Below are positions 6,759 to 63,944 of a stretch of 64,000 bases of DNA, in pieces. This DNA comes from Bacteroidales bacterium. GTDB lineage: Bacteria; Bacteroidota; Bacteroidia; Bacteroidales; P3. The stretch lies in the NCBI GenBank assembly GCA_022482545.1, contig JAKVOZ010000005.1:86617-150616 (forward strand). The letters run 5' to 3'. A program made the translations under genes and the position numbers. Positions within the stretch are counted from its first letter, which is position 1, and the number at the start of each line of letters is the position of its first letter. The notes beneath the pieces are model-generated. The model saw nothing but the letters and a program-made list of their open reading frames with translations. It did not search any database and was not told the DNA's origin.

Positions 6759-6763
6759 CAACC

Positions 6764-7556: not shown

Positions 7557-7676
7557 TTTTAATAGAATAAGAAAACAATTTATTGAAATCAAAAAATAAC
7601 TTACTCTTTCTTTGTTCTACACTAAATAAAACTAAGATTTATCTTCGTTTGACAGCATATTTTTAAAATAATATAT

Positions 7677-7684: not shown

Positions 7685-7708
7685 CATTGTTTTTTAAAGA
7701 ATAATAAT

Positions 7709-8713: not shown

Positions 8714-8717
8714 AAAG

Positions 8718-9689: not shown

Positions 9690-9704
9690 TAAATTTGTCT
9701 TAAT

Positions 9705-10241
9705 ATGAATACTAAATTGTCAATGGATTCTTTGAATAGAATATCAATCCAAGAATTTAAACAAAGTGAGAAAACTCCTATAACTATTATTCTTGACAAC
9801 ATAAGAAGTATGAATAATATTGGGTCAGTGTTTAGAACATCTGATGCTTTTAGAATAGAGAAGATATGGCTTTGTGGTATTACTGCAACGCCACCACATA
9901 GAGAAATAAATAAAACTGCTCTTGGTGCAACTGATAGTGTGGAATGGGAATATTGTTCTTCTTGTATTCAATGCGTAAATAATCTTAAAGAAAAGAACTA
10001 TAAGATATATTCTATTGAACAAACAACAGATAGTATTATGCTTGAAGATTTTCAAATCAAACAAACGCCAATAGCAATTGTTTTTGGCAATGAGGTTGAT
10101 GGCGTTGAGCAAGAAGTTATCAATGTTTCAGATGGAGTAATTGAGATACCACAGTTTGGAACAAAGCATAGCCTTAACATTTCTGTTTCTTGCGGAATAG
10201 TTGTTTGGGAATTATTTAAAAAAATACAACCAAAATATTAA
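9705..10241 (+). CDS. TrmH/SpoU-family RNA 2'-O-methyltransferase
   Basis: A 178-residue SPOUT-class methyltransferase that would 2'-O-methylate tRNA or rRNA. The three family motifs are present: N-x-G-x-x-x-R-T in NIGSVFRTSDAF (near residue 40), the SAM-knot strand IVFGNEVDGV (near residue 125) and IPQFGTKHSLNISVS (near residue 148), with the catalytic-type Asn/Arg in place. There is no extra RNA-binding domain, so it is a minimal member. The substrate cannot be told from sequence. Its stop lies 2 bp from that of convergent polA, with no room for a separate terminator. Confidence 0.88.
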   Translation: MNTKLSMDSLNRISIQEFKQSEKTPITIILDNIRSMNNIGSVFRTSDAFRIEKIWLCGITATPPHREINKTALGATDSVEWEYCSSCIQCVNNLKEKNYKIYSIEQTTDSIMLEDFQIKQTPIAIVFGNEVDGVEQEVINVSDGVIEIPQFGTKHSLNISVSCGIVVWELFKKIQPKY

Positions 10242-10243
10242 TC

Positions 10244-13003: not shown

Positions 13004-13010
13004 AAGTTTT

Positions 13011-14279: not shown

Positions 14280-14307
14280 TTCTTTATTTCTTATATGTTT
14301 TATTTTG

Positions 14308-14315
14308 CAAATCTA
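14308..14315 (-). promoter_or_regulatory. Promoter -7 box (TAGATTTG, minus strand) for M64-polA
   Basis: The plus strand reads CAAATCTA, giving TAGATTTG on the minus strand about 30 nt before the M64 start. A CTTG -33-like element lies 20 bp further upstream (14336-14339). Confidence 0.6.
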
Positions 14316-14369
14316 AGCATTTATTTTCATTCATACAAGATAAAAAAATAAATTTGAATTTAACTTAAT

Positions 14370-14405
14370 TAACTCTTCGTAAAAATTAATTATAATGAAG
14401 AGTTA
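14370..14405. repeat. Intergenic inverted repeat with dispersed 20-bp sequence
   Basis: Arms TAACTCTTC (14370-14378) and GAAGAGTTA (14397-14405). The first 20 bp (14370-14389) recur exactly at 20043-20062, between the GT4 and prenyl synthase genes. Confidence 0.7.
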
Positions 14406-14436
14406 TGAAAATATTTTGAAGTTTTTTTAATATTTC

Positions 14437-14468
14437 TTTGTATAATTATTTTTTTCTTTCTATTTTTG
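14437..14468 (+). promoter_or_regulatory. tnaA promoter (TTTG-N20-TATTTTTG)
   Basis: The -33 box TTTG (14437-14440) and -7 box TATTTTTG (14461-14468) are separated by 20 bp, a full match to the Bacteroidota vegetative promoter. The transcript would start near 14473, leaving a leader of about 190 nt before tnaA. Confidence 0.8.
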
Positions 14469-14489
14469 CAAAAAGGTAATTATTTTAAT

Positions 14490-14570
14490 ATGAAAGTTGC
14501 AACTCACATAAAGTTTATTTCTCATGAGTTCCTAAATATTAAGGAACGTGATAAATTTTTGTTCCTTTAA
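14490..14570 (+). CDS. Candidate leader peptide ORF upstream of tnaA (26 codons)
   Basis: A short ORF (ATG at 14490, TAA at 14568) begins just after the predicted transcript start. It contains no Trp codon, so it is not a close TnaC homologue. Its last codons overlap hairpin arms, so translating it would decide which hairpin forms. Coding is not proven; it could be chance in an AT-rich leader. Confidence 0.3.
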   Translation: MKVATHIKFISHEFLNIKERDKFLFL

Positions 14571-14574
14571 TATT
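14528..14574 (+). promoter_or_regulatory. Mutually exclusive hairpins in the tnaA leader
   Basis: Hairpin A pairs GTTCCT (14528-14533) with AGGAAC (14542-14547). Hairpin B pairs 14535-14547 with 14561-14574 (13 bp, one bulged T). They share 14542-14547, so only one can form. No U-tract follows B, so this is not a plain intrinsic terminator. Confidence 0.45.
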
Positions 14575-14661
14575 ATATTACATTTTATATCGTACAAATT
14601 ATTTCATTAATTACACACGTATTTTTATTAACAATAAATAAATTTAAAAAATTAAAATATT

Positions 14662-16038
14662 ATGGAATTACCATTTGCAGAATCTTGGAAAATCAAGATG
14701 GTTGAACCAATTAGAAAAAGTACACGCAGTGAACGTGAACAATGGTTAAAGGAAGCACATTATAATGTATTCCAATTAAAAGCAGAACAAGTTTATATAG
14801 ACCTTCTTACAGATAGTGGAACAGGTGCTATGAGCGATAGACAATGGTCTGCATTAATGTTAGGAGATGAAAGCTATGCAGGAGCTACATCTTTCTACAA
14901 ATTTGAATCAATGGTTCAAAAAATAACAGGTTTCAAACACGTTATCCCTACTCACCAAGGTAGAGCAGCAGAAAACGTATTGTTCTCTTATCTTGTAAAA
15001 GCAGGCAACGTTATCCCTGGTAACGCACACTTTGATACAACAAAAGGACATATTGAAAGCCGTAAAGCAAAAGCTATTGATGTTACAGTTGATGAAGCAA
15101 AAAATACTCAACTTGAAGTACCTTTTAAAGGAAACGTTAGCATTGAGAAACTTGAAAAAGTATTAAAAGAAAATAAAGGTAATGTTCCTTTTATGGTACT
15201 TACAGTTACTAACAACACTGTTGGCGGACAACCAGTAAGTATGCAAAACATTAAAGAAACAAGTGCTCTTTGCAAAAAATATAATGTGCCTATTGTAATG
15301 GATTCAGCACGTTTTGCAGAAAATGCTTATTTCATTAAGACAAGAGAAAAAGGTTATGAGAACAAAACAATAAAAGAAATAGCATTAGAGATGTTTTCTT
15401 ATGTTGATGGAATGACAATGAGTGCAAAGAAAGATGCAATCGTTAATATGGGTGGCTTCATTGCAACAAATAAAGACGATTGGTATGAAGGAGCTAAGAT
15501 GTTCTGTATTCCTTTTGAAGGATATATCACTTATGGTGGTTTAAACGGAAGAGACCTTAATGCACTTGCTGTTGGACTTGATGAAAACACAGAGTTTGAT
15601 ATGCTTGAAACACGTATTAAACAAGTACAATATTTAGCAAGTAAATTAGATGAATATCATATTCCTTATCAAAGACCAGCAGGTGGGCACGCTATCTTTG
15701 TTGATGCAGATAAAGTATTAGACTGCGTACCAAAAGAAGAATTTCCTGCTCAAACTCTTACATGCGAATTATATTTAGAGGCTGGTGTTAGAGCTTGTGA
15801 AATAGGTTATATATTAGCAGATAGGGACCCTGTTACAAGAGAGAATCGTTTTGGTGGATTAGACCTTCTTAGAATGGCTATACCAAGAAGAGTTTATACT
15901 AATAATCACATGGACGTTATTGCTGCTGCATTAAAGAACGTTTATGAAAGAAGAGAAACAGTTAAACATGGTGTTGCTATTGAATGGGAAGCTCCACTTA
16001 TGAGACACTTTACTGTTAAACTAAAAAGATTAGGATAA
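14662..16038 (+). CDS. tnaA: Tryptophanase
   Basis: A PLP enzyme that splits L-tryptophan to indole, pyruvate and ammonia. The 458-residue protein matches the tryptophanase/tyrosine phenol-lyase family end to end, with the PLP lysine in MSAKKDA. Two specificity positions favour tryptophanase: FDTTKGH carries the Asp found in TnaA where phenol-lyases have Thr, and ACEIGY lacks the Arg phenol-lyases use for tyrosine (MERG). Other landmarks are PTHQGRAAE, DSARFAENAYF and the C-terminal R-H-F-T. It is a single-gene transcript with a leader of about 190 nt and a terminator at 16066-16098; no tryptophan permease is adjacent. Confidence 0.95.
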   Translation: MELPFAESWKIKMVEPIRKSTRSEREQWLKEAHYNVFQLKAEQVYIDLLTDSGTGAMSDRQWSALMLGDESYAGATSFYKFESMVQKITGFKHVIPTHQGRAAENVLFSYLVKAGNVIPGNAHFDTTKGHIESRKAKAIDVTVDEAKNTQLEVPFKGNVSIEKLEKVLKENKGNVPFMVLTVTNNTVGGQPVSMQNIKETSALCKKYNVPIVMDSARFAENAYFIKTREKGYENKTIKEIALEMFSYVDGMTMSAKKDAIVNMGGFIATNKDDWYEGAKMFCIPFEGYITYGGLNGRDLNALAVGLDENTEFDMLETRIKQVQYLASKLDEYHIPYQRPAGGHAIFVDADKVLDCVPKEEFPAQTLTCELYLEAGVRACEIGYILADRDPVTRENRFGGLDLLRMAIPRRVYTNNHMDVIAAALKNVYERRETVKHGVAIEWEAPLMRHFTVKLKRLG

Positions 16039-16065
16039 TATTCTTTTAATATATTTAACAATAAT

Positions 16066-16098
16066 AAAGGGTTATCTTTAATAATAAGATAACCCTTT
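16066..16098. terminator. Bidirectional terminator between tnaA and the lipoprotein gene
   Basis: A perfect 13-bp stem (16066-16078 and 16086-16098) with a 7-nt loop, followed by T's on the plus strand. It lies between two convergent genes. Confidence 0.85.
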
Positions 16099-16109
16099 TT
16101 GTTATTCCT

Positions 16110-16463
16110 CTATTTCTTTTTCAAATCCCAAACAACATTACCTTTATATGATAGTTTCAACTCTTTCTCATTTAATGTTGTGATGTCATAGGTCATTGTA
16201 TCCATAAATTCATTCCCATTACCAATACTTTTTGAAACAAGTTTAAGTTTATTACCTTCTTTTATATACGACTTAATAACAAGTGTTGCCATATTTATTG
16301 ATTTAGCTGAACCATCTTTATTAAATTCTATGCCTTGTTTTTTTCCTACTTGACCAACAATAGGTTCAGTCCATATACCAATAATATCTTTATTCTTAGT
16401 TTGACATCCTGCTATTAAACAACTTAATCCTGCAATGATAATTATTCTTTTATTTATTCTCAT
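16110..16463 (-). CDS. Lipocalin-like lipoprotein
   Basis: A 117-residue protein with a lipoprotein signal peptide: charged MRINKR, hydrophobic core and lipobox LIAGC (Cys20). The mature part begins with an I-I-G-I-W-T-E segment and a G-I-E-F-N-K-D-G-S-A-K turn, the start of the small lipocalin-like domains common in Bacteroidota lipoproteins, and ends with V-V-W-D-L. About eight beta strands are expected. It is one of the few genes here ending in TAG. It lies 15 bp after the prenyl synthase gene, perhaps on the same transcript. Ligand unknown. Confidence 0.7.
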   Translation of the reverse strand: MRINKRIIIIAGLSCLIAGCQTKNKDIIGIWTEPIVGQVGKKQGIEFNKDGSAKSINMATLVIKSYIKEGNKLKLVSKSIGNGNEFMDTMTYDITTLNEKELKLSYKGNVVWDLKKK

Positions 16464-16478
16464 AATCTTAATATTTTT

Positions 16479-17453
16479 TTATCGACTTCTATCTATTAAT
16501 TTATTAGCAAAAGTTCTTAGATTTTCTTTCTTTTTATCTTCTACACTTACTTTATCTAATGCAGAAAGAGCTTTGTCTGTATAATCTTTTATCATCTTCT
16601 CAATATCTTCTTTAACTGAATATTTCTCAAAAATATCCCTTACTGTTTTTTGTTTCTTTTGAAAATCTATTGTCTTAGTTAAATATTCATTAAGAAGTAT
16701 TTGTTTATCCTTTTCATCTGCTTTCTCTATCGCAGTAAGATAAAGTATTGTTTTTTTGTTGTCAGCAATGTCAGTTCCTGTTACTTTTCCAAAATCTTTT
16801 AAGTTGCTCCAACAATCAAGTACATCATCTTGTAATTGAAAAGCTATTCCAATATTTAAACCAAATTCTGATAAAAGATTCATATCTTCTGCTTCTGCTT
16901 TTGATATTATTGCTCCCATCTTTAATGCCCCTGCAAGAAGTACTCCTGTTTTTAAACTTATCATACCAATATACTCTTTCTTTGTTACATCATGACGGTT
17001 CTCAAAATCCATATCATATGCCTGCCCTTGACAGATATTTATCAAAACAGCAGTCATTGTTTTAGTTAAAGATGGAATGAATTCTTTATCACAATTAAGA
17101 ATATATTGATAAGCCAACGCAAACATAGCATCTCCTGAAAGTATTGCTTTGTTAGTCCCATATTTCTGATAAACAGTAGGCTTGCCTCTTCTTAATGGAG
17201 AAGCGTCCATAATATCATCATGCAAAAGAGTAAAATTGTGTAAAACCTCAATTGCAATTGCAGCATTATATGCTTTCTCTATTTCACAATCAAACATATC
17301 TGCTACAACCAAAGTAAGCATTGGACGAATACGCTTGCCACCTTGATGTAAGGAATAGTCAATAGGTTCATATAAAGTAATAGGATTAAAATCATATTTT
17401 TCATTTTCCACTATTTCTATTGCTTTCTTTTGTAATTGCTCAAAACTATACAT
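16479..17453 (-). CDS. Short-chain polyprenyl diphosphate synthase (FPP/GGPP type)
   Basis: A trans-prenyltransferase of 324 residues that would condense IPP onto allylic diphosphates. The first aspartate-rich motif is DDIMD (in LLHDDIMDASPLRRG) and the second is DDVLD (in FQLQDDVLDCW), with the G-K-R-I-R-P substrate loop near residue 40. The fifth residue before the first motif is Phe, which in this family usually limits products to C15-C20. This contrasts with Ala in the paralogue at 20196-21173, so the two probably divide short- and long-chain synthesis. It follows wecB by 74 bp. Confidence 0.88.
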   Translation of the reverse strand: MYSFEQLQKKAIEIVENEKYDFNPITLYEPIDYSLHQGGKRIRPMLTLVVADMFDCEIEKAYNAAIAIEVLHNFTLLHDDIMDASPLRRGKPTVYQKYGTNKAILSGDAMFALAYQYILNCDKEFIPSLTKTMTAVLINICQGQAYDMDFENRHDVTKKEYIGMISLKTGVLLAGALKMGAIISKAEAEDMNLLSEFGLNIGIAFQLQDDVLDCWSNLKDFGKVTGTDIADNKKTILYLTAIEKADEKDKQILLNEYLTKTIDFQKKQKTVRDIFEKYSVKEDIEKMIKDYTDKALSALDKVSVEDKKKENLRTFANKLIDRSR

Positions 17454-17527
17454 AATTATTGTTTTTTTATTAATTCTTATTCTTATACCATATTGATAAT
17501 CAATAGTTGTTATCTTTTAATCTTGAT

Positions 17528-18661
17528 TTATTTTATTGTTTTGATTATCTTATCACAAATAAACTCTGCTGCTTTTCCATCACCAAATATTTGAGGAAAA
17601 TCCTTTGGAGTTTCTTTTAGAAATGCTTTTGCTGATGAAATAATCTTGTCTTTATCTGTATCTGCTACAACAGCATTGCCCGTATTCACTATCTCAATCC
17701 ATTCTGTTTGCTTGCGAAGTATTATACTTGGTTTTTTCAAATAATATGCTTCCTTTTGAACTCCACCACTATCTGTTACAATTAACTTGCTTTTTGCTTC
17801 CAAATATATCATATCAAGAAAACTTACTGGCTCTATTATCTTTATGTTAGTATTCTTTTCAAGGCGTTTAACGAAGTCTTCTCCAAGCATAAGAGGCATC
17901 ATCTTTCTTGTCCTTGGATGTAAAGGCAATATGATTTTGTTGTCTTTGCTCATATCTTCAAGTGCAGAAAAGATATTAGTTAAACGTTCTTTATCATCAG
18001 TATTAGTATTGCGATGAATAGTACAAAGAATGAAATCTTTCCCAAACTTCTCTATACTATCTATTTTATTAATGGCATACTTATAAAAAAAGAGTGTGTT
18101 ATCATACATAATATCTCCACAATGATAAATATTAGGGCAGTTAAATGTTGGTTTATCTGACAAAGTAGAAGAAAAACCTTCGTGAATTAAATTATCATAG
18201 CCTGCTTGTGTGGGAGTAAAAAGAAGTGTAGATACGTGGTCAGAAAGAATACGATTAATCTCTTCTGGCATTGTCTTATCAAAAGAACGAAGACCTGCTT
18301 CAATATGAATAACTTTAATTTGCATCTTACTTGCCGCAATAGCACCTGCAAGAGTTGAGTTTGTATCTCCATAAATAATCATTGCATCAGGTTTTTCTTT
18401 TGTTAGAATATCTTCAAGTTTTATTATCATTTTGCCTGTTTGTTCGCCATGAGAGCCACTTCCAACACCAAGATTGTATTTTGGCTTAGGAATATTTAGT
18501 TCAGAGAAGAATACTTCGGACATATTTTCATCATAATGTTGCCCTGTATGAACAATTACTTCTGTTATATTTTTGCTAAACGAGGTTTTTATTGCACGAG
18601 AAAGTGCAGATGCTTTAATTATTTGAGGTCTTGCACCTATTATTGTCAGTAGTTTTATCAT
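17528..18661 (-). CDS. wecB: UDP-N-acetylglucosamine 2-epimerase (non-hydrolysing)
   Basis: Converts UDP-GlcNAc to UDP-ManNAc for surface polysaccharide. The 377-residue protein has the family's N-terminal GARPQIIKAS (G-x-R-P-x-x-I-K), a H-T-G-Q-H-Y-D-x-x-M-S stretch, the nucleotide-binding E-A-G-L-R-S-F-D and E-E-I-N-R loops, and the C-terminal SGGVQKEAYYL and R-x-x-T-E-W. It lies 11 bp after the GT4 gene, so both are probably part of one glycan pathway. No UDP-ManNAc dehydrogenase is present here. Confidence 0.93.
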   Translation of the reverse strand: MIKLLTIIGARPQIIKASALSRAIKTSFSKNITEVIVHTGQHYDENMSEVFFSELNIPKPKYNLGVGSGSHGEQTGKMIIKLEDILTKEKPDAMIIYGDTNSTLAGAIAASKMQIKVIHIEAGLRSFDKTMPEEINRILSDHVSTLLFTPTQAGYDNLIHEGFSSTLSDKPTFNCPNIYHCGDIMYDNTLFFYKYAINKIDSIEKFGKDFILCTIHRNTNTDDKERLTNIFSALEDMSKDNKIILPLHPRTRKMMPLMLGEDFVKRLEKNTNIKIIEPVSFLDMIYLEAKSKLIVTDSGGVQKEAYYLKKPSIILRKQTEWIEIVNTGNAVVADTDKDKIISSAKAFLKETPKDFPQIFGDGKAAEFICDKIIKTIK

Positions 18662-52917: not shown

Positions 52918-52991
52918 GGTCTAATAGCTCAGCTGGATAGAGCGACTGCCTTCTAAGCAGTAGGTCGAAGGTTCGAATCCTTCTTAGATCA
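52918..52991 (+). tRNA. tRNA-Arg (anticodon TCT)
   Basis: A 74-nt cloverleaf: acceptor GGTCTAA/TTAGATC (one G-T pair), anticodon stem ACTGC/GCAGT with loop CTTCTAA and T loop TTCGAAT. It forms the boundary with the accessory island and is a plausible insertion site. Confidence 0.94.
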
Positions 52992-53028
52992 CTTCCAAAT
53001 ACTGTAAATCAAATAGTTAAATATTTTT

Positions 53029-54049: not shown

Positions 54050-54775
54050 TTATAGTGGCATTTGTTGGTAAATCTTACCATTTAATAATTTGCCATTTTC
54101 ATGTTTATTCCTCTTTATACCATCATTGCCCCATGTTCCCCATTGTTTGAAAAAAAATATTTTCTTTTGTTCTTTTACTTGTCTTTGAATAGATAAAATC
54201 CATTCTTCTTTCATTTGTCTTGCTTTTACTCCACTTTCGCCACCAACAATAATCCAATCTATTCCTTGTAAATTTAAAATTCCTAAATCATTTAATAATG
54301 GTTCACATGATAAGAATTTAATATGAGCCTTTAAATTTCTTATTAAATCAATTCTACCTTTTTCTTCTTTACATTCTACTGTCGTACCCACCCAGATATT
54401 ATTTGGTATTTCTCTTGTTGAGAAGTACTCGTTCATTATGTTAGCTCTTTTTGTTAGAATTTGATAATTGTGTTGAGGCGTCTTTCTTATAACATCTAAG
54501 ACTTTATCAATAAATTCAAATGGAACATCTTTATTAAATAAATCACTCATTGAACATACAAATACATTATGAGGCTTCCTCCATGCTAATGGTTCTTGAA
54601 GAGAATTTTCATGTAGGGTTAAAAGAAAATTATTTCTGTATTTTATTTGTCCCATAGCATATAAACGCCTTGACATAGTTTCAGCATAACAGTTTTGACA
54701 ACCTGCTGAAATTTTTGTACACCCTGTAATAGGATTCCATGTTTTATCTGTCCATTCAATCTTTGTTGTTCCCAT
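54050..54775 (-). CDS. DUF5131 / phage Gp37-Gp68-like three-Cys-motif protein
   Basis: A 241-residue protein. The N-terminus I-E-W-T-D-K-T-W-N-P-I-T-G-C with C26 and C29 (Cys19-x6-Cys26-x2-Cys29, then YAE) is the hallmark of the phage Gp37/Gp68 (DUF5131) family, which resembles a radical-SAM core but with altered cysteine spacing. Further blocks VFVCSMSDLF, ILTKRA, NIWVGTTVE and WIIVGGESG match the family. It is 2 bp downstream of a TcmP gene, the usual partner. Biochemical function is unknown; the pair occurs on phages and accessory islands. Confidence 0.88.
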   Translation of the reverse strand: MGTTKIEWTDKTWNPITGCTKISAGCQNCYAETMSRRLYAMGQIKYRNNFLLTLHENSLQEPLAWRKPHNVFVCSMSDLFNKDVPFEFIDKVLDVIRKTPQHNYQILTKRANIMNEYFSTREIPNNIWVGTTVECKEEKGRIDLIRNLKAHIKFLSCEPLLNDLGILNLQGIDWIIVGGESGVKARQMKEEWILSIQRQVKEQKKIFFFKQWGTWGNDGIKRNKHENGKLLNGKIYQQMPL

Positions 54776-54777
54776 TA

Positions 54778-55677
54778 TTATTTAATAATTTGCGATGCTA
54801 TTTTTTTTGCTACTCCATTATTTGAAGCAAAAGCTAAATGATAAATTGGTACATTATTAGAATTACGTAAAATCAAAGGTGATTCAGTAACATATTTCCA
54901 TATAGTATTTAACTGCTTAATGTATAGTTTTGCTATTTTCTGTATTGGTTTTTCCACTTTCCGTGCTTTTATTTCGGTTTCATTAAAAAGATTAGTTTCT
55001 TTATGTTCATTATAAAAATACTCTTTTATTTCTGCTTCTTGCAATCCAAAAAAGGTTTCTAATTTGTCTATGTACATTAATTTCATATTTCTATCTAATA
55101 ATCTATTTATTATTACTCCTGTAGGAATAAGAATCCACATATCTGTTCTCGTGTCTTTTAATTGTTCTATACTCTTCCAATTTATTTGCATTCCAAATGG
55201 ATCTAAAAAAACTAAAGCTGCATAGTTATTTGTTTTCATTGCTTCGGCAAGTTTAAGAATTTGTATATTAGCATCACAGCAACGGAATTCTAACTTATAA
55301 TCATTATTTTCAAAATTTTTTAATTTATTTTTTAATTTATCAATAGAATCCTTGTTACTATCAATAAAATAATAATAATTAAACTTATTTTCTATGTTCA
55401 GTACTCTTTCTGCAGCACCTTCATATACTATTATATCTTTTTCTTCTATGTTGTATTCTTTAAACGTATGAAATAAATTATTGTTATTATATTTAATATT
55501 GTCACTCAAACCTCTGTCTCCACAACCAACAAATCCATCAAAATAAATAGTTTCCCATTTATTTTGATTTTTGTATTTATTAATAATAGTTAAATATGCT
55601 TCTACATATTTAGTAAAAGCTAATAATTTCTTCTCTGTCCAATCACCACCCCATAGTTTGTTTTGTGTATTAGTCAT
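54778..55677 (-). CDS. Three-Cys-motif partner protein TcmP
   Basis: A 299-residue protein opening with W-T-E-K-K-L and the family motif IYFDGFVGCG near residues 45-52, and with VFLDPFGMQINW near the middle, a strand-loop like the catalytic region of Rossmann methyltransferases. The C-terminal third is probably a winged-helix segment. It is named for its constant pairing with the three-Cys DUF5131 protein, encoded 2 bp downstream here. The function of the pair is unknown; position next to a restriction-like module is consistent with, but does not prove, a defence or counter-defence role. Confidence 0.85.
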   Translation of the reverse strand: MTNTQNKLWGGDWTEKKLLAFTKYVEAYLTIINKYKNQNKWETIYFDGFVGCGDRGLSDNIKYNNNNLFHTFKEYNIEEKDIIVYEGAAERVLNIENKFNYYYFIDSNKDSIDKLKNKLKNFENNDYKLEFRCCDANIQILKLAEAMKTNNYAALVFLDPFGMQINWKSIEQLKDTRTDMWILIPTGVIINRLLDRNMKLMYIDKLETFFGLQEAEIKEYFYNEHKETNLFNETEIKARKVEKPIQKIAKLYIKQLNTIWKYVTESPLILRNSNNVPIYHLAFASNNGVAKKIASQIIK

Positions 55678-56071: not shown

Positions 56072-59000
56072 ATGAGTACTACAAAATTTTTTAACAATAA
56101 TGATGGTAATACATTATTTGAGAAGATAAAAGGTATCTGCAATGATATGACTTCGTTGTATGAGTTTTGTGCTGCCACTGCTTATTTTAGGAGTTCAGGA
56201 TATTATAAAATAGATAATGAATTAAAATCTGTATCTAAAATACGAATACTTGTTGGGATTAATATAGACTATTTATTAAAAAAATATAAAACACCGACTA
56301 ATAATAAATTAAACGATGCTCCAATATATGAACAAGCTAAAGTTATTTATGATAAAGAATATAATAATGATATTCAAGAAGCCAATTATAATAAAGAGGT
56401 AGAAAGTGGTATAAAGAAATTATGTAAAGATATAATTGATAAAAGGGTTGAATTAAGAATACATCCCTCAAAAAACCTACATGCAAAATTCTATCTTTTT
56501 TTACCTCAATTACATACAGAGAATAGTGATGGTTGGGTTATTATGGGTTCAAGTAACCTATCTGATGCTGGATTAGGTACAAACCCATCGTCAAGGTATG
56601 AATTAAATGTGGCAATGAAAGATTATGATGATGTCGCTTTTTGTAAAAATGAATTTGAGAATTTATGGGAACAATCTATAGAAATAACAAAAGACGATAT
56701 AGTTAAATTTAATCAACATAATCATATATATCAAAAAATAACCCCTTATGAACTCTATATTAAATTATTAATTGATTTTTACGGCGAGCAAATTGAAGAT
56801 GATTTTAATATAGAATTGCCCAATGATATTATAGATTTAAAGTATCAAAAAGATGCTGTCAATCAAGGGTATCAAATGCTGTTAAAGCATAATGGTTTTA
56901 TACTTGCTGATGTTGTTGGACTTGGTAAGACAATGATTGCTACAATGATTGCCAAACGTTTTATAGAGGCTAATGGGAGAAACTCTAAAATTTTAGTCAT
57001 TTACCCTCCTACAATAGAACAGAATTGGAAAGATACCTTTAAAAAATTTAATATAACAAAATATACAGATTTTATATCTAATGGTAGTCTAAATAAAATC
57101 ATAGAGGAAAAAGGTAATTATAGAAATAAAGAAGAATATGATTTAATATTAGTTGATGAAGCACATAAATTCAAAAATGATACATCTGGCATGTATGATA
57201 GCCTACAACAGATATGTAAAGCTGAACGAGAAAATAAAGGAGATAGAATACATTCAAAAGAAAAGAAGGTCATACTTATATCAGCGACGCCATTAAACAA
57301 CAGACCAGATGACTTGTATAATCTACTACAATTATTCCAAGATAGAAGAAATTCAAATATAGATGGCATACCTAATCTTCAAAATTATTTTGCTCCTAAA
57401 ATTAAAGAATATAAAGATATTATAAAATCTGAGCATACAAAAGAGGATACAAAAAAGATTGATAAACTTTATGCTGATGTTAGAGAAAAAGTAATAGACC
57501 AGATAACTGTTAGAAGAACACGTAATAATATAACTAACAATCCAGAATATAGAAAAGACCTTGAAATACAAAATATTAAATTTCCTAATATAGAGCAACC
57601 GATAGAAATAAATTATGAATTAGATGATAGATTATCTTCACTATTTGGCGAAACGATGAGGATATTAACTGAAGATTTACAATATTCAAGATACCAAGCG
57701 ATTGGCAATTTAAAAGACGAGATCAGGAAAAAACATTATCCAACTGCAATACACACTTCTCTTTTACTAGCAAATATATATAAAACACTTATGGTAAAAA
57801 GGTTGGAAAGCAGTTTCTACGCATTCGAAAAATCTTTAGAAAATTTAAAAAATGTCACAGGTGGAATGATAGAGATGTTCAATCAAGATAAAATCATAAT
57901 AGCCCCAGAATTAAATGTAGGATATTTACAATCTAAAGGGCTTGATATAGATGAAATTATTGAGTTGGGTACTGATAAAATGAATACAGAAAAATCCAAT
58001 TTTGTTTTCACTTCTAAAGATTTTGAAGATGGCTTTTATAAAGCACTCATAGAAGATGTTGACATATTAGATAAATTAATTAAACAATGGAAAGAAATTA
58101 AAATAGACCCTAAATTAAATAAGTTTATTGATTGTTTTAATGAACAAATTATAGATAAAGAAAAAAATCCAAGTCAGAAATTGATAATCTTTACAGAGAG
58201 TAAAGATACATTATCATATTTATATGATGAATTAACAAAAAAATTAAAAAGAAAAGATATTTTGCATGTATCTTCTATAACAAAAAAACAATGTGCTCCT
58301 ATTATTCAAGAGAATTTTGATGCTAATTATGATAAGACAAAACAAAAGAATGACTTCAATATACTAATAACTACTGATGTGTTAGCAGAAGGAATTAATC
58401 TTCATAGGGCAAATGTTATAATGAATTATGATACTCCTTGGAATTCTACAAAACTAATTCAACGAATAGGGCGATTAAATAGAATAGGCTCAACTGCAAA
58501 ATCTATAATTAATTATATGTTTTACCCTTCTTCTCAAGGCAATAAGCAAATACATTTATACAAAAATGCTTTAACTAAACTACAAGGTTTTCATTCTGCT
58601 TTTGGTGAAGATAGTCAAATATATTCAAAAGAAGAGATTGTCCAAGATTTTAAATTATACAATACTCAAGTGGCTGACAATGTAGATAAATCATTAGAGT
58701 TATTAAGATTTATAAGAGCATTCAAAAGTAACTATCCTAATGATTATAATAGAATAAAAAAATTACCTTTAAAATCCCGTACTATTAGAAATATTAAGAA
58801 TATCAATAAACAAGGAATAATACCTCAAACTACTATTACGTACATAGCTTCTAATGAGAAAAAAGAATTCTATAAAATAGAAAAAGATAAAATAGAAGCC
58901 ATTAATTTTTTAGAAGCCATTGATATTTTTAAGGCAGAAAAAACAGAAGAGTCTATGAATATTGATATACCAGAAGAACATTATAATCAAGTATCTTTGG

Positions 59001-59365
59001 CTCAAAAACAATTTGACGAAGATACAACACAAGAACTTATTAATGGCTCTAATACCGCATCTTCAACGAAAGATTCTAAAACTGCTACTGCTTTAAAAAT
59101 ATTGCGTGAAATAGAACGCTATGATGACTCTTTAAAAGAAGATTGTGATAGATTATCTTCTTATATTGATAATGGGACATATAATAACTTAACAAGAGAG
59201 ATTAACAAATTAAATAAAAGAAATATTACAATAGAAACCAAGACTAATACAATAAAAGGACTTGCTTCTCAATACAATAGTTCAATCAAAAAAGATAAAA
59301 CTAAACAAGGTAAAAAGGAACAAGATTATAAAGCCAAAATTATTCTTGCTGAAACTTTTTTATAA
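56072..59365 (+). CDS. SNF2-type helicase with N-terminal PLD-like nuclease domain
   Basis: A 1097-residue, two-part protein. Residues about 1-200 form a single-HKD phospholipase-D-like domain, with His137 and Lys139 in NLHAKFYLF and GSSNLSDAGL following; the usual Asp of HxKx4D is not kept. Residues about 250-850 are an SF2/SNF2 helicase: Walker A DVVGLGKT (near 280), DEAH (362), motif III SATPLNNRP and motif VI QRIGRLNRIG (near 797). The C-terminal 200 residues are charged and coiled-coil-like. It starts a two-gene unit, 25 bp before an Eco57I-type methyltransferase. I infer an ATP-driven restriction effector that translocates on DNA and cuts with the PLD domain. Confidence 0.88.
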   Translation: MSTTKFFNNNDGNTLFEKIKGICNDMTSLYEFCAATAYFRSSGYYKIDNELKSVSKIRILVGINIDYLLKKYKTPTNNKLNDAPIYEQAKVIYDKEYNNDIQEANYNKEVESGIKKLCKDIIDKRVELRIHPSKNLHAKFYLFLPQLHTENSDGWVIMGSSNLSDAGLGTNPSSRYELNVAMKDYDDVAFCKNEFENLWEQSIEITKDDIVKFNQHNHIYQKITPYELYIKLLIDFYGEQIEDDFNIELPNDIIDLKYQKDAVNQGYQMLLKHNGFILADVVGLGKTMIATMIAKRFIEANGRNSKILVIYPPTIEQNWKDTFKKFNITKYTDFISNGSLNKIIEEKGNYRNKEEYDLILVDEAHKFKNDTSGMYDSLQQICKAERENKGDRIHSKEKKVILISATPLNNRPDDLYNLLQLFQDRRNSNIDGIPNLQNYFAPKIKEYKDIIKSEHTKEDTKKIDKLYADVREKVIDQITVRRTRNNITNNPEYRKDLEIQNIKFPNIEQPIEINYELDDRLSSLFGETMRILTEDLQYSRYQAIGNLKDEIRKKHYPTAIHTSLLLANIYKTLMVKRLESSFYAFEKSLENLKNVTGGMIEMFNQDKIIIAPELNVGYLQSKGLDIDEIIELGTDKMNTEKSNFVFTSKDFEDGFYKALIEDVDILDKLIKQWKEIKIDPKLNKFIDCFNEQIIDKEKNPSQKLIIFTESKDTLSYLYDELTKKLKRKDILHVSSITKKQCAPIIQENFDANYDKTKQKNDFNILITTDVLAEGINLHRANVIMNYDTPWNSTKLIQRIGRLNRIGSTAKSIINYMFYPSSQGNKQIHLYKNALTKLQGFHSAFGEDSQIYSKEEIVQDFKLYNTQVADNVDKSLELLRFIRAFKSNYPNDYNRIKKLPLKSRTIRNIKNINKQGIIPQTTITYIASNEKKEFYKIEKDKIEAINFLEAIDIFKAEKTEESMNIDIPEEHYNQVSLAQKQFDEDTTQELINGSNTASSTKDSKTATALKILREIERYDDSLKEDCDRLSSYIDNGTYNNLTREINKLNKRNITIETKTNTIKGLASQYNSSIKKDKTKQGKKEQDYKAKIILAETFL

Positions 59366-59390: not shown

Positions 59391-62300
59391 ATGACAAAAG
59401 AAGAATTACAAAAGATATTTCAATCAAAATATGATAGAAATAATTATATAAAAATATTAGAAGATATTTTTAGTGTATCAACAATATTAAATAATCCTAT
59501 AACATTAGAGGGTAAAGATGAAAACGAGATTAAAGGAGTTGAACTTGTTGATGAATATAAGCCAGACAATCATCTAATAGGCTTTTATGAGTATGATTTA
59601 AATAATACTAAAATAAAAATAGAACTTAACAGAGTCGGATTAAGGAATTATGTTCATGGTCTTCTAAAATATAATGTAGATGCTGCTATTGTTGTTTTCC
59701 ATAAAGATAATATATGGAGACTAACATTCGCATGTGATTTAAAAGGTGAAGAAACTGATGCAAAACGTTTTTCTTTTGTTTTTGGAGATAATGATGAAAC
59801 ATATCGTACTGCTTGTGATAGGTTTCTTGATTTACAAGAAAAAGGTGTTACATATAAAAGTATTAATGATGCTTTTTCTGTCGAGGCTTTATCTGATGAC
59901 TTCTTCTATAGATACAAGGAGGTTTATACAGATTTCTGTAATTATATGGTTGATAATCAAAAAGATTTTAAAGACTTTTTTATTATTGATAGTACAGGAA
60001 AAGCAGTTAGAGATTATGTAAAGAAAATGATGGGACGTTTAACTTTCCTATATTTTCTCCAAAAGAAGGGTTGGCTTAATAATAGAAAAGACTATCTACA
60101 AAATCTTTTTAAAAATTCAAAATACCAAGATGATTATTTAGATAAAGTATTAGAACCTCTTTTTTTTGGTGTTCTAAACACAAAAGAAGAAAATAGAAGA
60201 AAATTATTTGAAGATAAAGGATATGATTTATCATTATTAAAAGAATGGAAAAACATTCCTTATCTCAATGGTGGTTTGTTTGAACAAGATGAATTAGACA
60301 AACCTGATTCTAAATTCCCAAAAGAATATTTTGAACGATTATTCGATTTTTTTGCACAATATAATTTTACTATAGATGAAAATGACCCTAATGATGCAGA
60401 AGTTGGGGTCAATCCAGAGATGTTAGGGCGTATATTTGAAAACTTATTGGAAGATAATAAAGATAAAGGTGCTTTCTATACTCCACAAAAGATTGTTGAA
60501 TATATGTGTAAAGAAAGTCTTATTCAATATTTAAAAACAAAAATCCCAAATATATCTATTCATAATTCTATTACTACACTTATTAAAAATCATAAATTAG
60601 AAAAAGACATACAAAAGAAAGATATTCTAACTGATATTAATAATGCGTTAAAAAATGTAAAAATATGTGATCCTGCCATTGGCTCTGGTGCCTTTCCTAT
60701 GGGATTATTAAATGAGATTTTTTATATTCGTACATTGATAATGCCTTTTATTGATAAAGAAGAAAATATAAATTCAGTTGAATTAAAGAAACAAATAATA
60801 CAGAATAATATTTATGGTGTGGATATTGAAAAAGGGGCTGTTGATATTGCACGACTTCGTTTTTGGTTATCTCTTATTGTAGATGAAGATACACCGAAAA
60901 CTTTACCTAACCTTGATTATAAGATTGTTCAAGGCAATTCTTTACTTGAACGTTTTGAAGATATAGATCTTGATTTTAGTAAAATAAATCTTAATTCTAA
61001 TGAAAAAAAACTGCAAAAAAATCTTTTTAATGAAGTAGAAAATACTCAATTAACAATAGAATTTAAAAAACAATCTATTAATGAACTTAATAATCTAATT
61101 AAAGAATATTTTGAAGAAAATGACCACGAAATAAAAGAAGATAATAAAAATAGAATAGAAGAAATTATAAATGAGGCTATTAAAGAATGTTTTAATAGGA
61201 CAAAGAAAGATTATAAAAAAAGAATTAATAATTTAATTCCATTATCTGTAAAAACCAAAAAGATAGAAAAAGAGATAGAAAATTTAAATAATAAATTAAA
61301 TGAATTAGATTCTAAACTTTTAAAATTAGAAAACATAAAAAAAGATAATAAACCTTATTTTTTATGGAATTTATATTTTAAAGATGTTTTTGATAATGGT
61401 GGCTTTGATATAGTTATAGGCAATCCTCCTTATATACAATTACAAAAAGATATAGGTGATGGGAAAACTAAATTAGGTGATTTATATAAAGATTGTGATT
61501 TTGAGACTTTTGAAAGGATGGGCGATATATATTGCTTATTTTATGATAAAGGATTGTCTATTCTAAAAGAAAAAGGCTGTATTATTTATATTACATCTAA
61601 CAAATGGATGAGAGCTGCATATGGAGAAAAGATTAGAAACTTCTTTTTAGGATATAATCCATCTCTACTTATTGATTTAGGTAGTGGTGTTTTTGAAAAT
61701 GCAACTGTTGATACTAATATATTAATGATAACTAAACAACATTCTAATAAAGATATATCATTAAACGCCACAAAAATACAAGAGAATATTAAAGATGTTA
61801 ATCTTAATAATATTACTTTTCAATCTGTGAAAATTAAGCCTGATGAAATATGGACAATACTTTCTCCTATTGAATACTCTATTAAACAAAAAATAGAATC
61901 TGTTGGTACACCATTGAAAGATTGGGATATAAAGATAAATTATGGCATTAAGACAGGTTATAATGAAGCTTTTATCATAACAAAAGAAAAGAGAGAAGAA
62001 ATATTAAATAATTGTAAAGATGAAGATGAACGCAAAAGGTCTGCCGAATTAATAAGACCTATTTTACGTGGCAGAGATATAAAAAGATATTCTTATGATT
62101 GGGCAAATTTGTACTTAATTAATACACATAATGATATCAAAGAAAAAGGTATAAACCCAATAGATATAAGCGATTATCCTGCCATTAAAGAACATCTTGA
62201 TAAGTATTATCAAAAATTAGAAAAAAGAGACGATAAAGGAGTAACACCATACAATTTAAGGAACTGTGCATATATGGAGGAATTTTTTAAACCAAAAATA

Positions 62301-62480
62301 TTATGGAAAATTATTGGATGTAATATAAATTTCTGTTATGATAATAATATGATGTTTTGTAATAATGCTGTTAATATATTAACTGGAAATAAAAATAATT
62401 TATTACAGTTTATTGGATTAATGAATAGCAAATTATTTAATTGGTATTTAAAATTAACAACGGAAGCCGAAGTTCAATGA
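59391..62480 (+). CDS. Eco57I/PglX-like N6-adenine DNA methyltransferase, current form cut short by TGA
   Basis: As read, 1029 residues. Motif I DPAIGSGAF is near residue 427, the acidic motif II GVDIEKGAVDIARLRFW follows, and the catalytic NPPY is at about residue 678; a Lys/Glu-rich coiled region lies between. The core ends at RPILRGRDIKRY, the usual junction to the target-recognition domain (TRD), and this is exactly where the 49-bp inverted repeat lies. The TRD beyond it (62105 on) is the exchangeable cassette. Translation stops at TGA 62478-62480 after EAEVQ, where relatives read EAEVQGGG; the same frame continues 63 codons to TAA at 62670-62672. Confidence 0.9.
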   Translation: MTKEELQKIFQSKYDRNNYIKILEDIFSVSTILNNPITLEGKDENEIKGVELVDEYKPDNHLIGFYEYDLNNTKIKIELNRVGLRNYVHGLLKYNVDAAIVVFHKDNIWRLTFACDLKGEETDAKRFSFVFGDNDETYRTACDRFLDLQEKGVTYKSINDAFSVEALSDDFFYRYKEVYTDFCNYMVDNQKDFKDFFIIDSTGKAVRDYVKKMMGRLTFLYFLQKKGWLNNRKDYLQNLFKNSKYQDDYLDKVLEPLFFGVLNTKEENRRKLFEDKGYDLSLLKEWKNIPYLNGGLFEQDELDKPDSKFPKEYFERLFDFFAQYNFTIDENDPNDAEVGVNPEMLGRIFENLLEDNKDKGAFYTPQKIVEYMCKESLIQYLKTKIPNISIHNSITTLIKNHKLEKDIQKKDILTDINNALKNVKICDPAIGSGAFPMGLLNEIFYIRTLIMPFIDKEENINSVELKKQIIQNNIYGVDIEKGAVDIARLRFWLSLIVDEDTPKTLPNLDYKIVQGNSLLERFEDIDLDFSKINLNSNEKKLQKNLFNEVENTQLTIEFKKQSINELNNLIKEYFEENDHEIKEDNKNRIEEIINEAIKECFNRTKKDYKKRINNLIPLSVKTKKIEKEIENLNNKLNELDSKLLKLENIKKDNKPYFLWNLYFKDVFDNGGFDIVIGNPPYIQLQKDIGDGKTKLGDLYKDCDFETFERMGDIYCLFYDKGLSILKEKGCIIYITSNKWMRAAYGEKIRNFFLGYNPSLLIDLGSGVFENATVDTNILMITKQHSNKDISLNATKIQENIKDVNLNNITFQSVKIKPDEIWTILSPIEYSIKQKIESVGTPLKDWDIKINYGIKTGYNEAFIITKEKREEILNNCKDEDERKRSAELIRPILRGRDIKRYSYDWANLYLINTHNDIKEKGINPIDISDYPAIKEHLDKYYQKLEKRDDKGVTPYNLRNCAYMEEFFKPKILWKIIGCNINFCYDNNMMFCNNAVNILTGNKNNLLQFIGLMNSKLFNWYLKLTTEAEVQ
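62056..62104 (+). repeat. Left 49-bp inverted repeat (recombination site)
   Basis: A perfect inverted copy of 63258-63306. It lies inside the methyltransferase gene and encodes RPILRGRDIKRYSYDW plus the first two bases of an Ala codon. An imperfect dyad (ATAT-aaaaag-ATAT) in its centre could be the crossover site. Identity ends abruptly at both edges. Confidence 0.97.
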
Positions 62481-62672
62481 GGAGGCATTCAATTATATGT
62501 TACTACATTAGAAAAAACTCTTTTAAAATTAGATTTTGATAATAGTTTCTCAACTATTGTTGAAAAATATTCTAATGGAGATACAGATATAACAGACAAT
62601 ATGATTGATAATGAAATCTATCGCTTATATAATTTAACAGAAGAAGAAAAAAACTATATACTTTCAATATAA
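62481..62672 (+). pseudogene. Untranslated tail of TRD cassette 1 after the in-frame TGA
   Basis: 63 codons plus TAA in the same frame as the methyltransferase, beginning GGIQLYVTTLEK and ending in the helical EIYRLYNLTEEEKNYIL tail typical of Eco57I-type enzymes. A single GGA-to-TGA change would explain the interruption. Confidence 0.8.
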
Positions 62673-63304
62673 TTAATTTCTTCTGTACTTAATTTATAAA
62701 TATCAAATATCATTGTATCTATTTTTTTTATATCTGAGTCAGTAATATTTTTAAGTTGTGCTATATGAGAAAATTCTTCTTTAAAAATAAATTCGATTTC
62801 ATTAGTTGGTAATAAAACTGGTATTTTAATAAAAAATATTTTACTTAATTCTCTGCCTTTTTCACCTAAAGTTGGGAAATTATTGGAAAAACAAAATCTA
62901 AATAGTTTTGAATTTAAAAAAGCTGTTAAAAAATACAATTTATCACCTGTAATAATAAAACATTTTTGATTCGTCATAAACTTTTTATTGTCTAAATAAA
63001 ATGGAAAATATTCTGTCATATTTGCATATACAATTTTTTGCTTATTAAATTCCTCCCAATAGCTTATACTATCTTGTGTCTCAAACCATTTATTATTTGT
63101 CTTTTTTCTTGCTTTAACTTCTTGTTTATTAATTATATACCTTTTGCCCGTTTGTTCTAATCTCTCAATTCCAAAAGATAATAAATATTCTTTTATTGAT
63201 GGATATTCTTCTATATCAATATTAACAGAAGGGAATGTCGCTATTAAATATAGTCCAGCCCAATCATAAGAATATCTTTTTATATCTCTGCCACGTAAAA
63301 TAGG
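62654..63304 (-). CDS. Silent, inverted TRD cassette 2 for the methyltransferase
   Basis: An open frame of 216 residues with no start of its own: a TGA (63307-63305) precedes it immediately outside the repeat and the first ATG is internal (63019). It opens with the repeat-encoded core junction, then DWAGLYLIATFPSV, a long new TRD including FETQDSISYWEEFNKQKIVY, FLNSKLFRF and a closing DIYKLSTEEINYIESI tail, all typical of type IIG/PglX-like specificity domains. It differs strongly from cassette 1. After inversion it would complete a 1105-residue methyltransferase (904 core codons plus 201). It ends in TAG. Confidence 0.88.
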   Translation of the reverse strand, partial: PILRGRDIKRYSYDWAGLYLIATFPSVNIDIEEYPSIKEYLLSFGIERLEQTGKRYIINKQEVKARKKTNNKWFETQDSISYWEEFNKQKIVYANMTEYFPFYLDNKKFMTNQKCFIITGDKLYFLTAFLNSKLFRFCFSNNFPTLGEKGRELSKIFFIKIPVLLPTNEIEFIFKEEFSHIAQLKNITDSDIKKIDTMIFDIYKLSTEEINYIESI

Positions 63305-63306
63305 TC
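63258..63306 (-). repeat. Right 49-bp inverted repeat (recombination site)
   Basis: The reverse complement equals 62056-62104 at all 49 positions. It lies between silent cassette 2 and the invertase gene. Confidence 0.97.
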
Positions 63307-63347
63307 AAATAAAATTATTAATTTTGGTATAAAAAAAACATAAAATT

Positions 63348-63944
63348 ATGATATACGGATATATAAGAGTAAGCAGCGACAAGCAGACGGTTGAAAACCA
63401 AAGATTTGAAATAAATAATTTCTGCCATAACAAGGAAATGTTTATTGATAAATGGATTGAAGAAACTATTTCAGGGACAAAAGATGTAAATGAAAGAAAA
63501 CTCGGCAAATTACTAAAAAGAATGCGAAAAGATGACGTGTTAATTTGTAGCGAATTATCAAGGTTAGGAAGAAATCTTTTGATGATAATGGGCATATTGA
63601 ATGAATGTATGAAAAATGATATTCAAGTATGGACAATAAAAGATAATTATAGATTGGGAAGTGATATAAATTCAAAGGTATTAGCATTTGCTTTTGGATT
63701 GAGTGCAGAAATAGAAAGAAATCTTATAAGCCAGAGAACAAAAGAAGCTCTTGCAAGAAAAAAAGCAGAAGGAGTAATCCTTGGAAGACCAAAGGGAAGA
63801 AAGTCAAGCAAAAAGAAACTTACAGGACTTGAAATAAAAATAAAAAAATTAAGAGAAGATAGAGTGTCTTATTCGGCTATAGCAAGAATATTAAAAGTTA
63901 ATCGTGCAACAGTAACTAATTTTGTAAAAGAGAATAATTTATAA
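63348..63944 (+). CDS. Serine site-specific recombinase, Mpi-like DNA invertase
   Basis: A 198-residue small serine recombinase. The catalytic Ser is in YIRVSSDKQT (Ser9 or Ser10), with Arg-rich SELSRLGRN and the GLSAEIERNLISQRTKEAL E-helix, then a C-terminal resolvase helix-turn-helix (YSAIARILKVNRATVTNFVK). By recollection it closely resembles the Bacteroides fragilis master invertase Mpi, which flips capsule promoters. Here it sits 41 bp outside the right inverted repeat, making it the obvious enzyme for the cassette inversion. A TAATTTTG box at 63319-63326 may be its promoter. Confidence 0.93.
   Translation: MIYGYIRVSSDKQTVENQRFEINNFCHNKEMFIDKWIEETISGTKDVNERKLGKLLKRMRKDDVLICSELSRLGRNLLMIMGILNECMKNDIQVWTIKDNYRLGSDINSKVLAFAFGLSAEIERNLISQRTKEALARKKAEGVILGRPKGRKSSKKKLTGLEIKIKKLREDRVSYSAIARILKVNRATVTNFVKENNL

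What the first reader, a model, noticed from the sequence alone, without database searches (positions are those of the whole stretch)
62056..63306. Invertible specificity cassette swaps the recognition domain of an Eco57I/PglX-like methyltransferase
Perfect 49-bp inverted repeats flank two different TRD cassettes facing each other. The left repeat is inside the methyltransferase gene at the conserved core-TRD junction, and both cassettes read in the same frame through the repeat. Flipping converts a 1029-residue enzyme into an 1105-residue one with a different TRD. Type I hsdS shufflons and BREX pglX inversions are established precedents, but here the partner is a PLD-SNF2 helicase rather than HsdR or BREX genes.
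Basis: partly seen in the sequence, partly recalled or inferred. Interest (0 to 1): 0.93.

Follow-up and report, generated by a model that had tools for sequence, protein, structure and literature searches.

The report
Invertible DNA-recognition cassette in a methyltransferase
A bacterial gene for a predicted DNA-methylating enzyme carries two alternative target-recognition ends facing each other between identical 49-base repeats, beside a gene for a predicted DNA-flipping enzyme, so flipping this segment would likely change which DNA sequence the cell marks and defends.

Summary
Observation confirmed. Perfect 49-bp inverted repeats (62056-62104 / 63258-63306) code RPILRGRDIKRYSYDWA at the methylase-TRD junction; inversion turns the 1029-codon ORF into a 1105-codon one. 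The same assembly also holds the flipped junction at the end of a second contig, so both orientations probably occurred in the sample. The present orientation carries a stop codon where its four closest relatives have a sense codon, so it may be the impaired state. The module recurs: 43 of 79 related genome loci have a facing TRD pair, 42 of them with an invertase, either with a PLD-SNF2 helicase, as here, or as one-chain Type IIG enzymes. Two further signatures: a codon-embedded site (Arg codon CGA at 94 of 102 invertase-near sites, background 12.5%), and a second in-frame repeat in mid-TRD in 20 of 43 loci, which would allow 2x2 half-TRD shuffling. Filed as a new variant of phase-variable R-M. 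Recombination, methylation and restriction are untested; two key surveys (Milman 2023, Chanin 2024) could not be read.

The parts
56072..59365 (+). PLD-SNF2 fusion protein, 1097 aa: PLDc_2, SNF2-rel_dom, Helicase_C; partner gene 25 bp upstream of the methyltransferase
   Evidence: Pfam; best PADLOC hit C3a139 'HKD+Snf2'; found next to the methyltransferase in relatives
59391..62480 (+). Eco57I-family N6-adenine DNA methyltransferase ORF, present orientation (state A), 1029 aa, ends at TGA 62478-62480
   Evidence: Pfam PF07669, PF12950; GNPPY motif in sequence; model aligns to BrxX, DrdV, TaqI
62056..62104 (+). left arm of the 49-bp inverted repeat, coding RPILRGRDIKRYSYDWA; starts with GACC
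63258..63306 (-). right arm of the 49-bp inverted repeat
   Evidence: alternative joint on contig C19
62105..62672 (+). TRD1 cassette (currently joined to the core); interrupted by TGA at 62478-62480, frame open again to 62672
62654..63257 (-). TRD2 cassette (silent in this orientation), stop at 62654-62656; would become the enzyme C-terminus after inversion
   Evidence: 62% identical to the active TRD of the Bacteroides pyogenes enzyme (G119:C13:16287-16913)
63348..63944 (+). serine recombinase, 198 aa, Mpi-family DNA invertase; likely acts on the repeats
   Evidence: Pfam Resolvase; NCBIfam NF009949 341.5 bits, cut-off 272; no other homologue found in the genome apart from the overlapping copy on C19
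62276..62285 (+). weak second site inside TRD1 (10 bp exact, GGAGGAATTT)
63047..63056 (-). weak second site inside TRD2 (partner of 62276-62285)
52918..52992 (+). tRNA-Arg, inferred integration site of the element carrying the system
52981..52997 (+). 17-bp direct repeat (putative attL) that recurs beyond an integrase gene on contig C19

Best explanation
This is a two-state DNA switch in which inversion between two identical 49-bp repeats, likely catalysed by the adjacent Mpi-family serine invertase, would swap the target recognition domain of an Eco57I-type adenine methyltransferase that is predicted to work with the PLD-SNF2 protein encoded just upstream. Shown by sequence: the repeats, the open reading frame through both cassettes, the invertase gene, a flipped junction on a second contig of the same assembly, and the same layout in dozens of other genomes. 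Inferred: that the invertase recombines these repeats, that the crossover lies in the GACC edge, that the two forms methylate different motifs, and that the PLD-SNF2 protein restricts unmodified DNA. Today's orientation ends at a stop codon about 64 residues early, so in this genome the switch may act as impaired/intact as well as specificity A/B.
For: Repeats and frame. Invertase 41 bp outside the right arm; no other homologue in a 94%-complete genome except its overlapping copy on C19. Flipped junction: contig C19 ends with invertase-repeat-TRD1 (73 bp of TRD1, identical), overlapping the C5 end at 742 of 743 bp. C5 and C19 fit one integrative element: a 17-bp repeat at the tRNA-Arg 3' end on C5 recurs beyond an integrase gene on C19. 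Recurrence: 43 of 79 genome loci have a facing pair, 42 of the 43 with an invertase. In 38 of 43 measured loci (38 of the 79 plus the window and four others) both orientations give a C-terminal tail of at least 190 aa. DNA-level constraint: the Arg codon at the repeat edge is CGA at 94 of 102 invertase-near sites against 12.5% of 2763 Arg codons in the cores, and its third base is the same in both arms in 41 of the 41 loci that could be aligned, of 48 tried. The silent S. copri TRD has an active counterpart in another protein (P0121: core 90%, TRD 88%).
Against: No reads were examined; both orientations are inferred from contigs, and a misassembly over a 49-bp repeat is possible. The flipped protein was not found in the databases (best full-length hit 51% identical). 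State A is broken by a stop. The window's own Arg codon is AGA, and only GACC is shared at the upstream edge. CGA is also found at 26 of 31 boundary sites with no invertase nearby; 27 of these 31 lie within 2.5 kb of a sequence end, so an invertase may be cut off, but the contrast with non-invertible enzymes is weak (9 of 14 unpaired loci looked at have CGA). 15 of 79 loci have the boundary and longer flank (about 0.8-10 kb) but no pair. The invertase family is known to me for acting on promoters (recalled), so substrate use is inferred.
Confidence: 0.87

Rival explanations
1. On/off switch: in this genome inversion mainly turns an impaired enzyme (truncated TRD1) into a complete one (TRD2), rather than exchanging two working specificities.
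For: TGA in TRD1 at a position where the four closest relatives have a sense codon; flipped ORF is intact at 1105 aa.
Against: In 38 of 43 loci both orientations are long, so the module as a whole looks like a specificity switch; the TGA may be recent or an error in the assembly.
Confidence: 0.3
2. The silent cassette is a donor used by homologous recombination or gene conversion; the invertase is incidental.
For: Some arms are long (exact runs up to 261 bp) and TRDs are mosaic across strains.
Against: In six loci the longest exact run at the junction is only 14-20 bp; 42 of 43 paired loci carry the invertase; the CGA bias marks a DNA-level constraint.
Confidence: 0.07
3. Assembly artefact or decayed duplicate: the facing cassette and the C19 junction result from misassembly or a dead copy.
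For: Contig ends lie at the locus; C19 holds only 73 bp of TRD1.
Against: Same layout in 43 of 79 other loci; silent frame open for 216 codons; Markov sequences give no repeat over 16 bp.
Confidence: 0.04
4. The switch serves gene regulation (a phasevarion) more than phage defence; PLD-SNF2 does not restrict DNA.
For: Specificity switching in Type I systems has regulatory effects (PMC7394358, passages read).
Against: PADLOC's nearest models for both proteins are defence or R-M components; the module lies on an inferred integrative element with a DarT/macro-domain pair.
Confidence: 0.25

Closest known systems
Inverting Type I hsdS loci (for example SpnD39III; Bacteroides fragilis hsdS shufflon)
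   Same: TRD exchange by inversion between in-gene repeats, with a locus-encoded recombinase; two repeat pairs give combinatorial alleles (PMC7394358, PMC3090145, passages read)
   Different: Here the TRD is part of the methyltransferase chain, there is no HsdS/HsdM/HsdR, the recombinase is a serine invertase of the Mpi family (the B. fragilis ones are tyrosine integrases), and the partner is PLD-SNF2
BREX PglX/BrxX
   Different: NCBIfam PglX scores far below cut-off; no PglZ or BrxC hit among the five genes scanned with PADLOC
Type IIG restriction-methylation enzymes (Eco57I, DrdV, BpuSI kind)
   Same: Eco57I methylase plus TaqI_C specificity domain; one sister locus scanned is a full-length Type IIG model match with the same switch (L184: PDLC03612, 1017 bits)
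   Different: The window enzyme shows no DUF7149/DUF7814, which the three helicase-free members scanned carry at the N-terminus
Prevotella intermedia 17F Pin17FIII system (PMC5608340; passages and second half of the Type II section read)
   Same: Two Type IIG-like genes downstream of an SNF2/RAD54 helicase; one gives GGYGAB, the other alone gives nothing; GGNYAG and CCNYAG unexplained
Prevotella nigrescens FDAARGOS_1486 locus (L264)
   Same: PLD-SNF2, methyltransferase, two silent cassettes, Mpi-family invertase
   Different: Repeat lies before the GNPPY motif, 47 nt at 96%, starting GACC; inversion would give 1054 instead of 1112 codons

Membership tests
Phase-variable (inverting) R-M system | inverted repeats inside the specificity-determining gene | tested here: met
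Phase-variable (inverting) R-M system | both orientations encode an enzyme with a different TRD, in frame | tested here: met
   state A is truncated by a stop
Phase-variable (inverting) R-M system | both orientations present in a population | tested here: inconclusive
   two alternative joints on contigs C5 and C19; no reads
Phase-variable (inverting) R-M system | methylation motif changes with orientation | not testable with these tools
   needs modification sequencing
Mpi-family DNA invertase | score above the curated NCBIfam cut-off | tested here: met
   NF009949 341.5 bits against 272
Type I R-M (hsdS shufflon) | separate HsdS subunit with HsdM and HsdR | tested here: not met
   TRD in the methylase chain; no specificity-subunit or HsdR family among the hits of five neighbouring proteins
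BREX | PglX above cut-off | tested here: not met
   PglX 85 of 500 bits
BREX | PglZ and BrxC in the cluster | tested here: not met
   no such hit in the five genes scanned with PADLOC nor, with Pfam only, in seven ORFs of the C19 side
DISARM | DrmD above cut-off | tested here: not met
   155.8 of 610 bits
Type IIG R-M | nuclease, methylase and TRD in one chain | tested here: inconclusive
   no N-terminal DUF7149/DUF7814 or other nuclease family in the window enzyme, though both are present in 3 of 3 helicase-free members scanned. That DUF7149 is the nuclease is an assumption; PADLOC's best models for the window enzyme are Type IIG
Eco57I-type methyltransferase with TaqI-like specificity domain | PF07669 and PF12950 above gathering scores | tested here: met
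   119.5/25.3 and 46/26.5 bits

The most novel reading that the evidence does not exclude
A cross-phylum family of single-gene specificity shufflons: one Mpi-family invertase works on recombination sites hidden in conserved codons, at the methylase-TRD junction and again in mid-TRD, so that one active and one silent cassette can give four enzymes (2 N-halves x 2 C-halves). The same switch has been fitted to one-chain Type IIG enzymes and to PLD-SNF2 methylase pairs, and it would explain published unassigned motif sets such as GGYGAB, GGNYAG and CCNYAG of Prevotella intermedia 17F as half-TRD recombinants.
Probability: 0.5. Interest if true: 0.82.

Novelty: new variant of a known kind. Interest (0 to 1): 0.72.

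Why it matters
If true, cells of one clone can change the DNA motif that they protect and restrict, or regulate by methylation, without new DNA. That would keep phages and plasmids from adapting to one pattern, and it would complicate genetic work in gut, rumen and oral Bacteroidales, where many of the loci were found. It offers a concrete cause for methylomes with more motifs than methylase genes. The codon-embedded site and the half-TRD repeat are directly testable, and the natural set of interchangeable half-TRDs (24 combinations of 4 N-half and 15 C-half families among 163 proteins) is a ready resource for reading the code between TRD sequence and DNA motif.

Tried and rejected

A control that came out weak: CGA at the boundary is also common in loci where I found no pair. 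Of 14 such loci read, 9 have CGA, 4 another codon (L210, L214, L222, L251) and in L247 the motif was not matched. Four of the nine (L216, L233, L238, L248) have tails under 150 aa and may be decayed; L189, L205, L237 and L256 are cut off about 1.0-1.3 kb on; L187 has full flank and an intact tail, and is a plain counter-example.

Papers. Searches whose listings show no description of an invertible TRD in an Eco57I/Type IIG or PLD-SNF2 system: (listings and abstract starts only). Passages read: PMC5903667, PMC10939037, PMC11892184, PMC3090145, PMC12707154, PMC7394358, PMC10333322; PMC5608340: passages and the second half of its Type II section. Not held: Milman 2023 (PMC9881135) and Chanin 2024. 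Milman is, by its title, a systematic survey of gene-altering inversions and may already list this family, so no claim of first report is made.

Dropped rows. Of 79 loci, 43 had a facing pair, 21 without pair end less than 700 bp after the boundary, 15 without pair have longer flank (the 43 and the 42 with invertase counted by hand). Five of the 43 were left out of the flip test: L204 and L226 (no exact repeat of 12 bp or more), L211, L217 and L228 (methylase not in range). The window and L166, L050, L051, L098 were added, which again makes 43. L065, another viral-collection locus with the layout, was not added. The flip test fails, or is short on one side, in five: L230, L235, L252, the window, L050.
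Full report
What is in the window. ORF 59391-62480 (+) is an Eco57I-family methyltransferase with a TaqI_C specificity domain matched from residue 890. The left repeat arm, 62056-62104, codes residues 889-905 (RPILRGRDIKRYSYDWA). The right arm is 63258-63306. The arms are identical over 49 bp and no longer. Between them lie two cassettes facing each other: TRD1, read with the core today, and TRD2 on the other strand. Inverting the segment in silico gives 1105 codons instead of 1029. From residue 881 on the two forms are 42% identical over 154 aa, the shared repeat included. No other inverted repeat within 5 kb in the 64 kb is as long; ten Markov sequences give 15-16 bp.

Forty-one bp beyond the right arm starts a 198-aa serine recombinase (63348-63944), which passes NCBIfam's cut-off for the Mpi-family DNA invertases (341.5 against 272 bits). 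Apart from its overlapping copy on contig C19, no second homologue was found in the genome. Between arm and gene stands TAATTTTG (63319-63326), which fits the Bacteroidota -7 box TAnnTTTG as I recall it; no call tested that.

Both orientations in one assembly. The 49-mer occurs three times in the genome, the third near the end of contig C19. There it joins the invertase to the first 73 bp of TRD1, which is the junction expected after inversion. C19 and the end of C5, where the window ends, overlap by 743 bp with one mismatch. A 17-bp direct repeat at the 3' end of tRNA-Arg (window 52981-52997) recurs on C19 beyond an integrase gene. By my arithmetic C5 and C19 then form one integrative element of about 16.7 kb that also carries a DarT and a macro-domain gene and a replication-like gene. 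A second genomic copy is therefore the less likely reading of C19. This is contig evidence, not read evidence.

State A carries a stop. TRD1 ends at a TGA; the frame then stays open for 63 codons, and the four closest relatives have a sense codon at that place (L209, L192, L240, L205). It is the only TGA stop among the 46 ORFs of at least 150 aa in the window. State B is intact. So here the flip may also be impaired/intact. A sequencing error is not excluded.

Recurrence. Searching 393 genomes of the order with each TRD showed facing pairs in several, and fetched stretches showed the invertase beside them. Of these 79, 43 have a facing pair (42 with an invertase); 21 without a pair end less than 700 bp beyond the boundary, where an assembly could break at a repeat; 15 have longer flank and no pair. 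Named isolates with the pair include Segatella copri, Hallella multisaccharivorax, Bacteroides oleiciplenus, Alloprevotella tannerae, Prevotella denticola and Chryseobacterium sp. Leaf404; Prevotella lacticifex has the pair, but its methylase core is interrupted (L212). Records labelled Kiritimatiellae, Verrucomicrobia, Planctomycetaceae, Ignavibacteriae and Anaerolineales, all MAGs whose labels I did not check, also carry it. In the viral collection 4 of 59 invertase loci carry the module.

Flip test. In 43 loci with a measurable repeat (38 of the 79, the window, and L166, L050, L051, L098), inversion keeps both tails at 190 aa or more in 38. The exceptions are L230, L235, L252, L050 and the window. 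PLD-SNF2 was found in 32 of 43; some of the other 11 are cut short by contig ends. The invertase points towards the silent cassette in 27, away in 15 (as here), and is missing in one.

Two flavours. Three helicase-free members scanned (L184, L208, L198) carry DUF7149-DUF7814 at the N-terminus, and the one scanned against PADLOC is a full-length Type IIG model match (L184, 1017 bits). Three members with PLD-SNF2 lack these domains at threshold (one has a sub-threshold DUF7814 trace), as does the window enzyme. So the same TRD switch seems to serve two restriction designs. That the PLD part is the nuclease is inference.

A recombination site hidden in codons. Both arms could be aligned on the RP codons in 41 of 48 loci tried. 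GACC is identical in both arms in 41 of 41. Three of these four letters are largely fixed by the amino acids; the informative one is the third base of the Arg codon, free to vary yet A in 98% of arms. The Arg codon is CGA at 94 of 102 invertase-near sites; CGA makes up 12.5% of 2763 Arg codons in the same cores. Sites are related by descent, so this is not 102 independent events. Sites without an invertase in reach also have CGA in 26 of 31, of which 27 of the 31 lie within 2.5 kb of a sequence end; among 14 unpaired loci read one by one, 9 have CGA, 4 have another codon and one was unreadable. So CGA marks this boundary type, while the contrast with truly fixed enzymes is weak. In the window the codon is AGA, and the perfect repeat begins exactly at GACC. 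In P. nigrescens (L264) the repeat sits at another place, before the GNPPY motif, yet it too starts with GACC, and there are two silent cassettes. I take GACC as the crossover region; that is inference.

A second site. In 28 of 43 loci both cassettes have the mid-TRD peptide [ED]DFxKPKI or a close form; in 20 of 43 the DNA there is an exact in-frame repeat of at least 16 bp, and in 20 of these 20 all four combinations of the two flips keep open tails of at least 180 aa. Between arms, identity is 0.79-1.00 from -1 to +22 and mostly falls to about half or less just outside; the Pro codon there is CCA in 44 of 49, against 28% of 1778 (29 loci). Among 259 collected proteins, 163 have both landmarks and fall into 4 N-half and 15 C-half families in 24 combinations; one C-half occurs with all four N-halves. 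These proteins are the top hits of three queries, so they are not an even sample. P0134 reads by eye as a mosaic of the two S. copri cassettes that changes over at this peptide; its whole TRD is also 78% identical to the silent B. pyogenes one. The window has only 10 bp of this site, so in this genome the second switch is doubtful.

Silent cassettes are real TRDs. The silent S. copri TRD is 88% identical to the active TRD of P0121, whose core is 90% identical. The window's TRD2 is 62% identical to the active TRD of B. pyogenes.

Structure. The model (mean pLDDT 71) aligns to BrxX over about 166-901 with rmsd 3.7-3.8, and to LlaGI, DrdV and TaqI methylases; CamA ranks first by Z but with rmsd over 12. 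The repeat, residues 889-905, therefore lies where the methylase part ends. The TRD itself is modelled too poorly to say more.

A published puzzle that fits. In P. intermedia 17F a helicase-linked pair of Type IIG-like genes in a 7.6-kb locus accounts for GGYGAB, while GGNYAG and CCNYAG stayed unassigned; the second gene alone methylates nothing (PMC5608340). A helicase, a methyltransferase and a silent cassette add up to about this length, and the three motifs read as GG or CC joined to YGAB or NYAG, which is what half-TRD shuffling would give. The paper also tells that both genes expressed together gave no further motif, which the idea has to meet by inversion in the native host. I could not obtain the sequence, so this is a prediction.

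Place among known systems. It works like an hsdS shufflon, but is not one: no HsdS, HsdM or HsdR. It is not BREX or DISARM by curated cut-offs. It is a new variant of phase-variable R-M. Ten literature searches showed no description in their listings (see Tried and rejected), but two key surveys could not be read.

Noticed in passing
window 54050-55677 (-): DUF5131/radical-SAM-like gene next to a TcmP (three-Cys-motif partner) gene; both match PADLOC candidate defence models (PDC-M41A, PDC-M30B/M41B), inside the same inferred element.
   Followed up: no
L034 (G000:C19) 13662-17721: Tyrosine integrase (13662-14909 +) and a DarT and macro-domain pair (16056-17721 -, DarTG-like toxin-antitoxin) on the contig that continues the element.
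   Followed up: partly
L264 (Prevotella nigrescens NZ_CP082843.1) 5860-13990: Three-cassette version with the repeat before the GNPPY motif, an AAA/DUF4143 gene between the two silent cassettes, Mpi-family invertase at the end.
   Followed up: partly
L167, L175, L166: In the layout with the invertase pointing at the cassette, the silent cassette has its own ATG overlapping or just after the invertase stop, so the silent TRD could be translated as a free polypeptide.
   Followed up: no
L035 (G068:C17) 8072-8905: Remnant: open invertase gene followed by a TRD1-like start cut off after about 75 codons.
   Followed up: no
L265 (Bacteroides finegoldii plasmid NZ_OY725960.1), L233, L238: Very similar boundary peptides with tails of only about 140 aa and no second boundary motif in the stretch read; L265 is 8.3 kb of a 15.5-kb plasmid.
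   Followed up: no
L187: PLD-SNF2 plus methyltransferase with CGA at the boundary, an intact 206-residue tail and full flank, but no facing cassette or inverted 14-mer found: a fixed relative or one that lost its switch.
   Followed up: no
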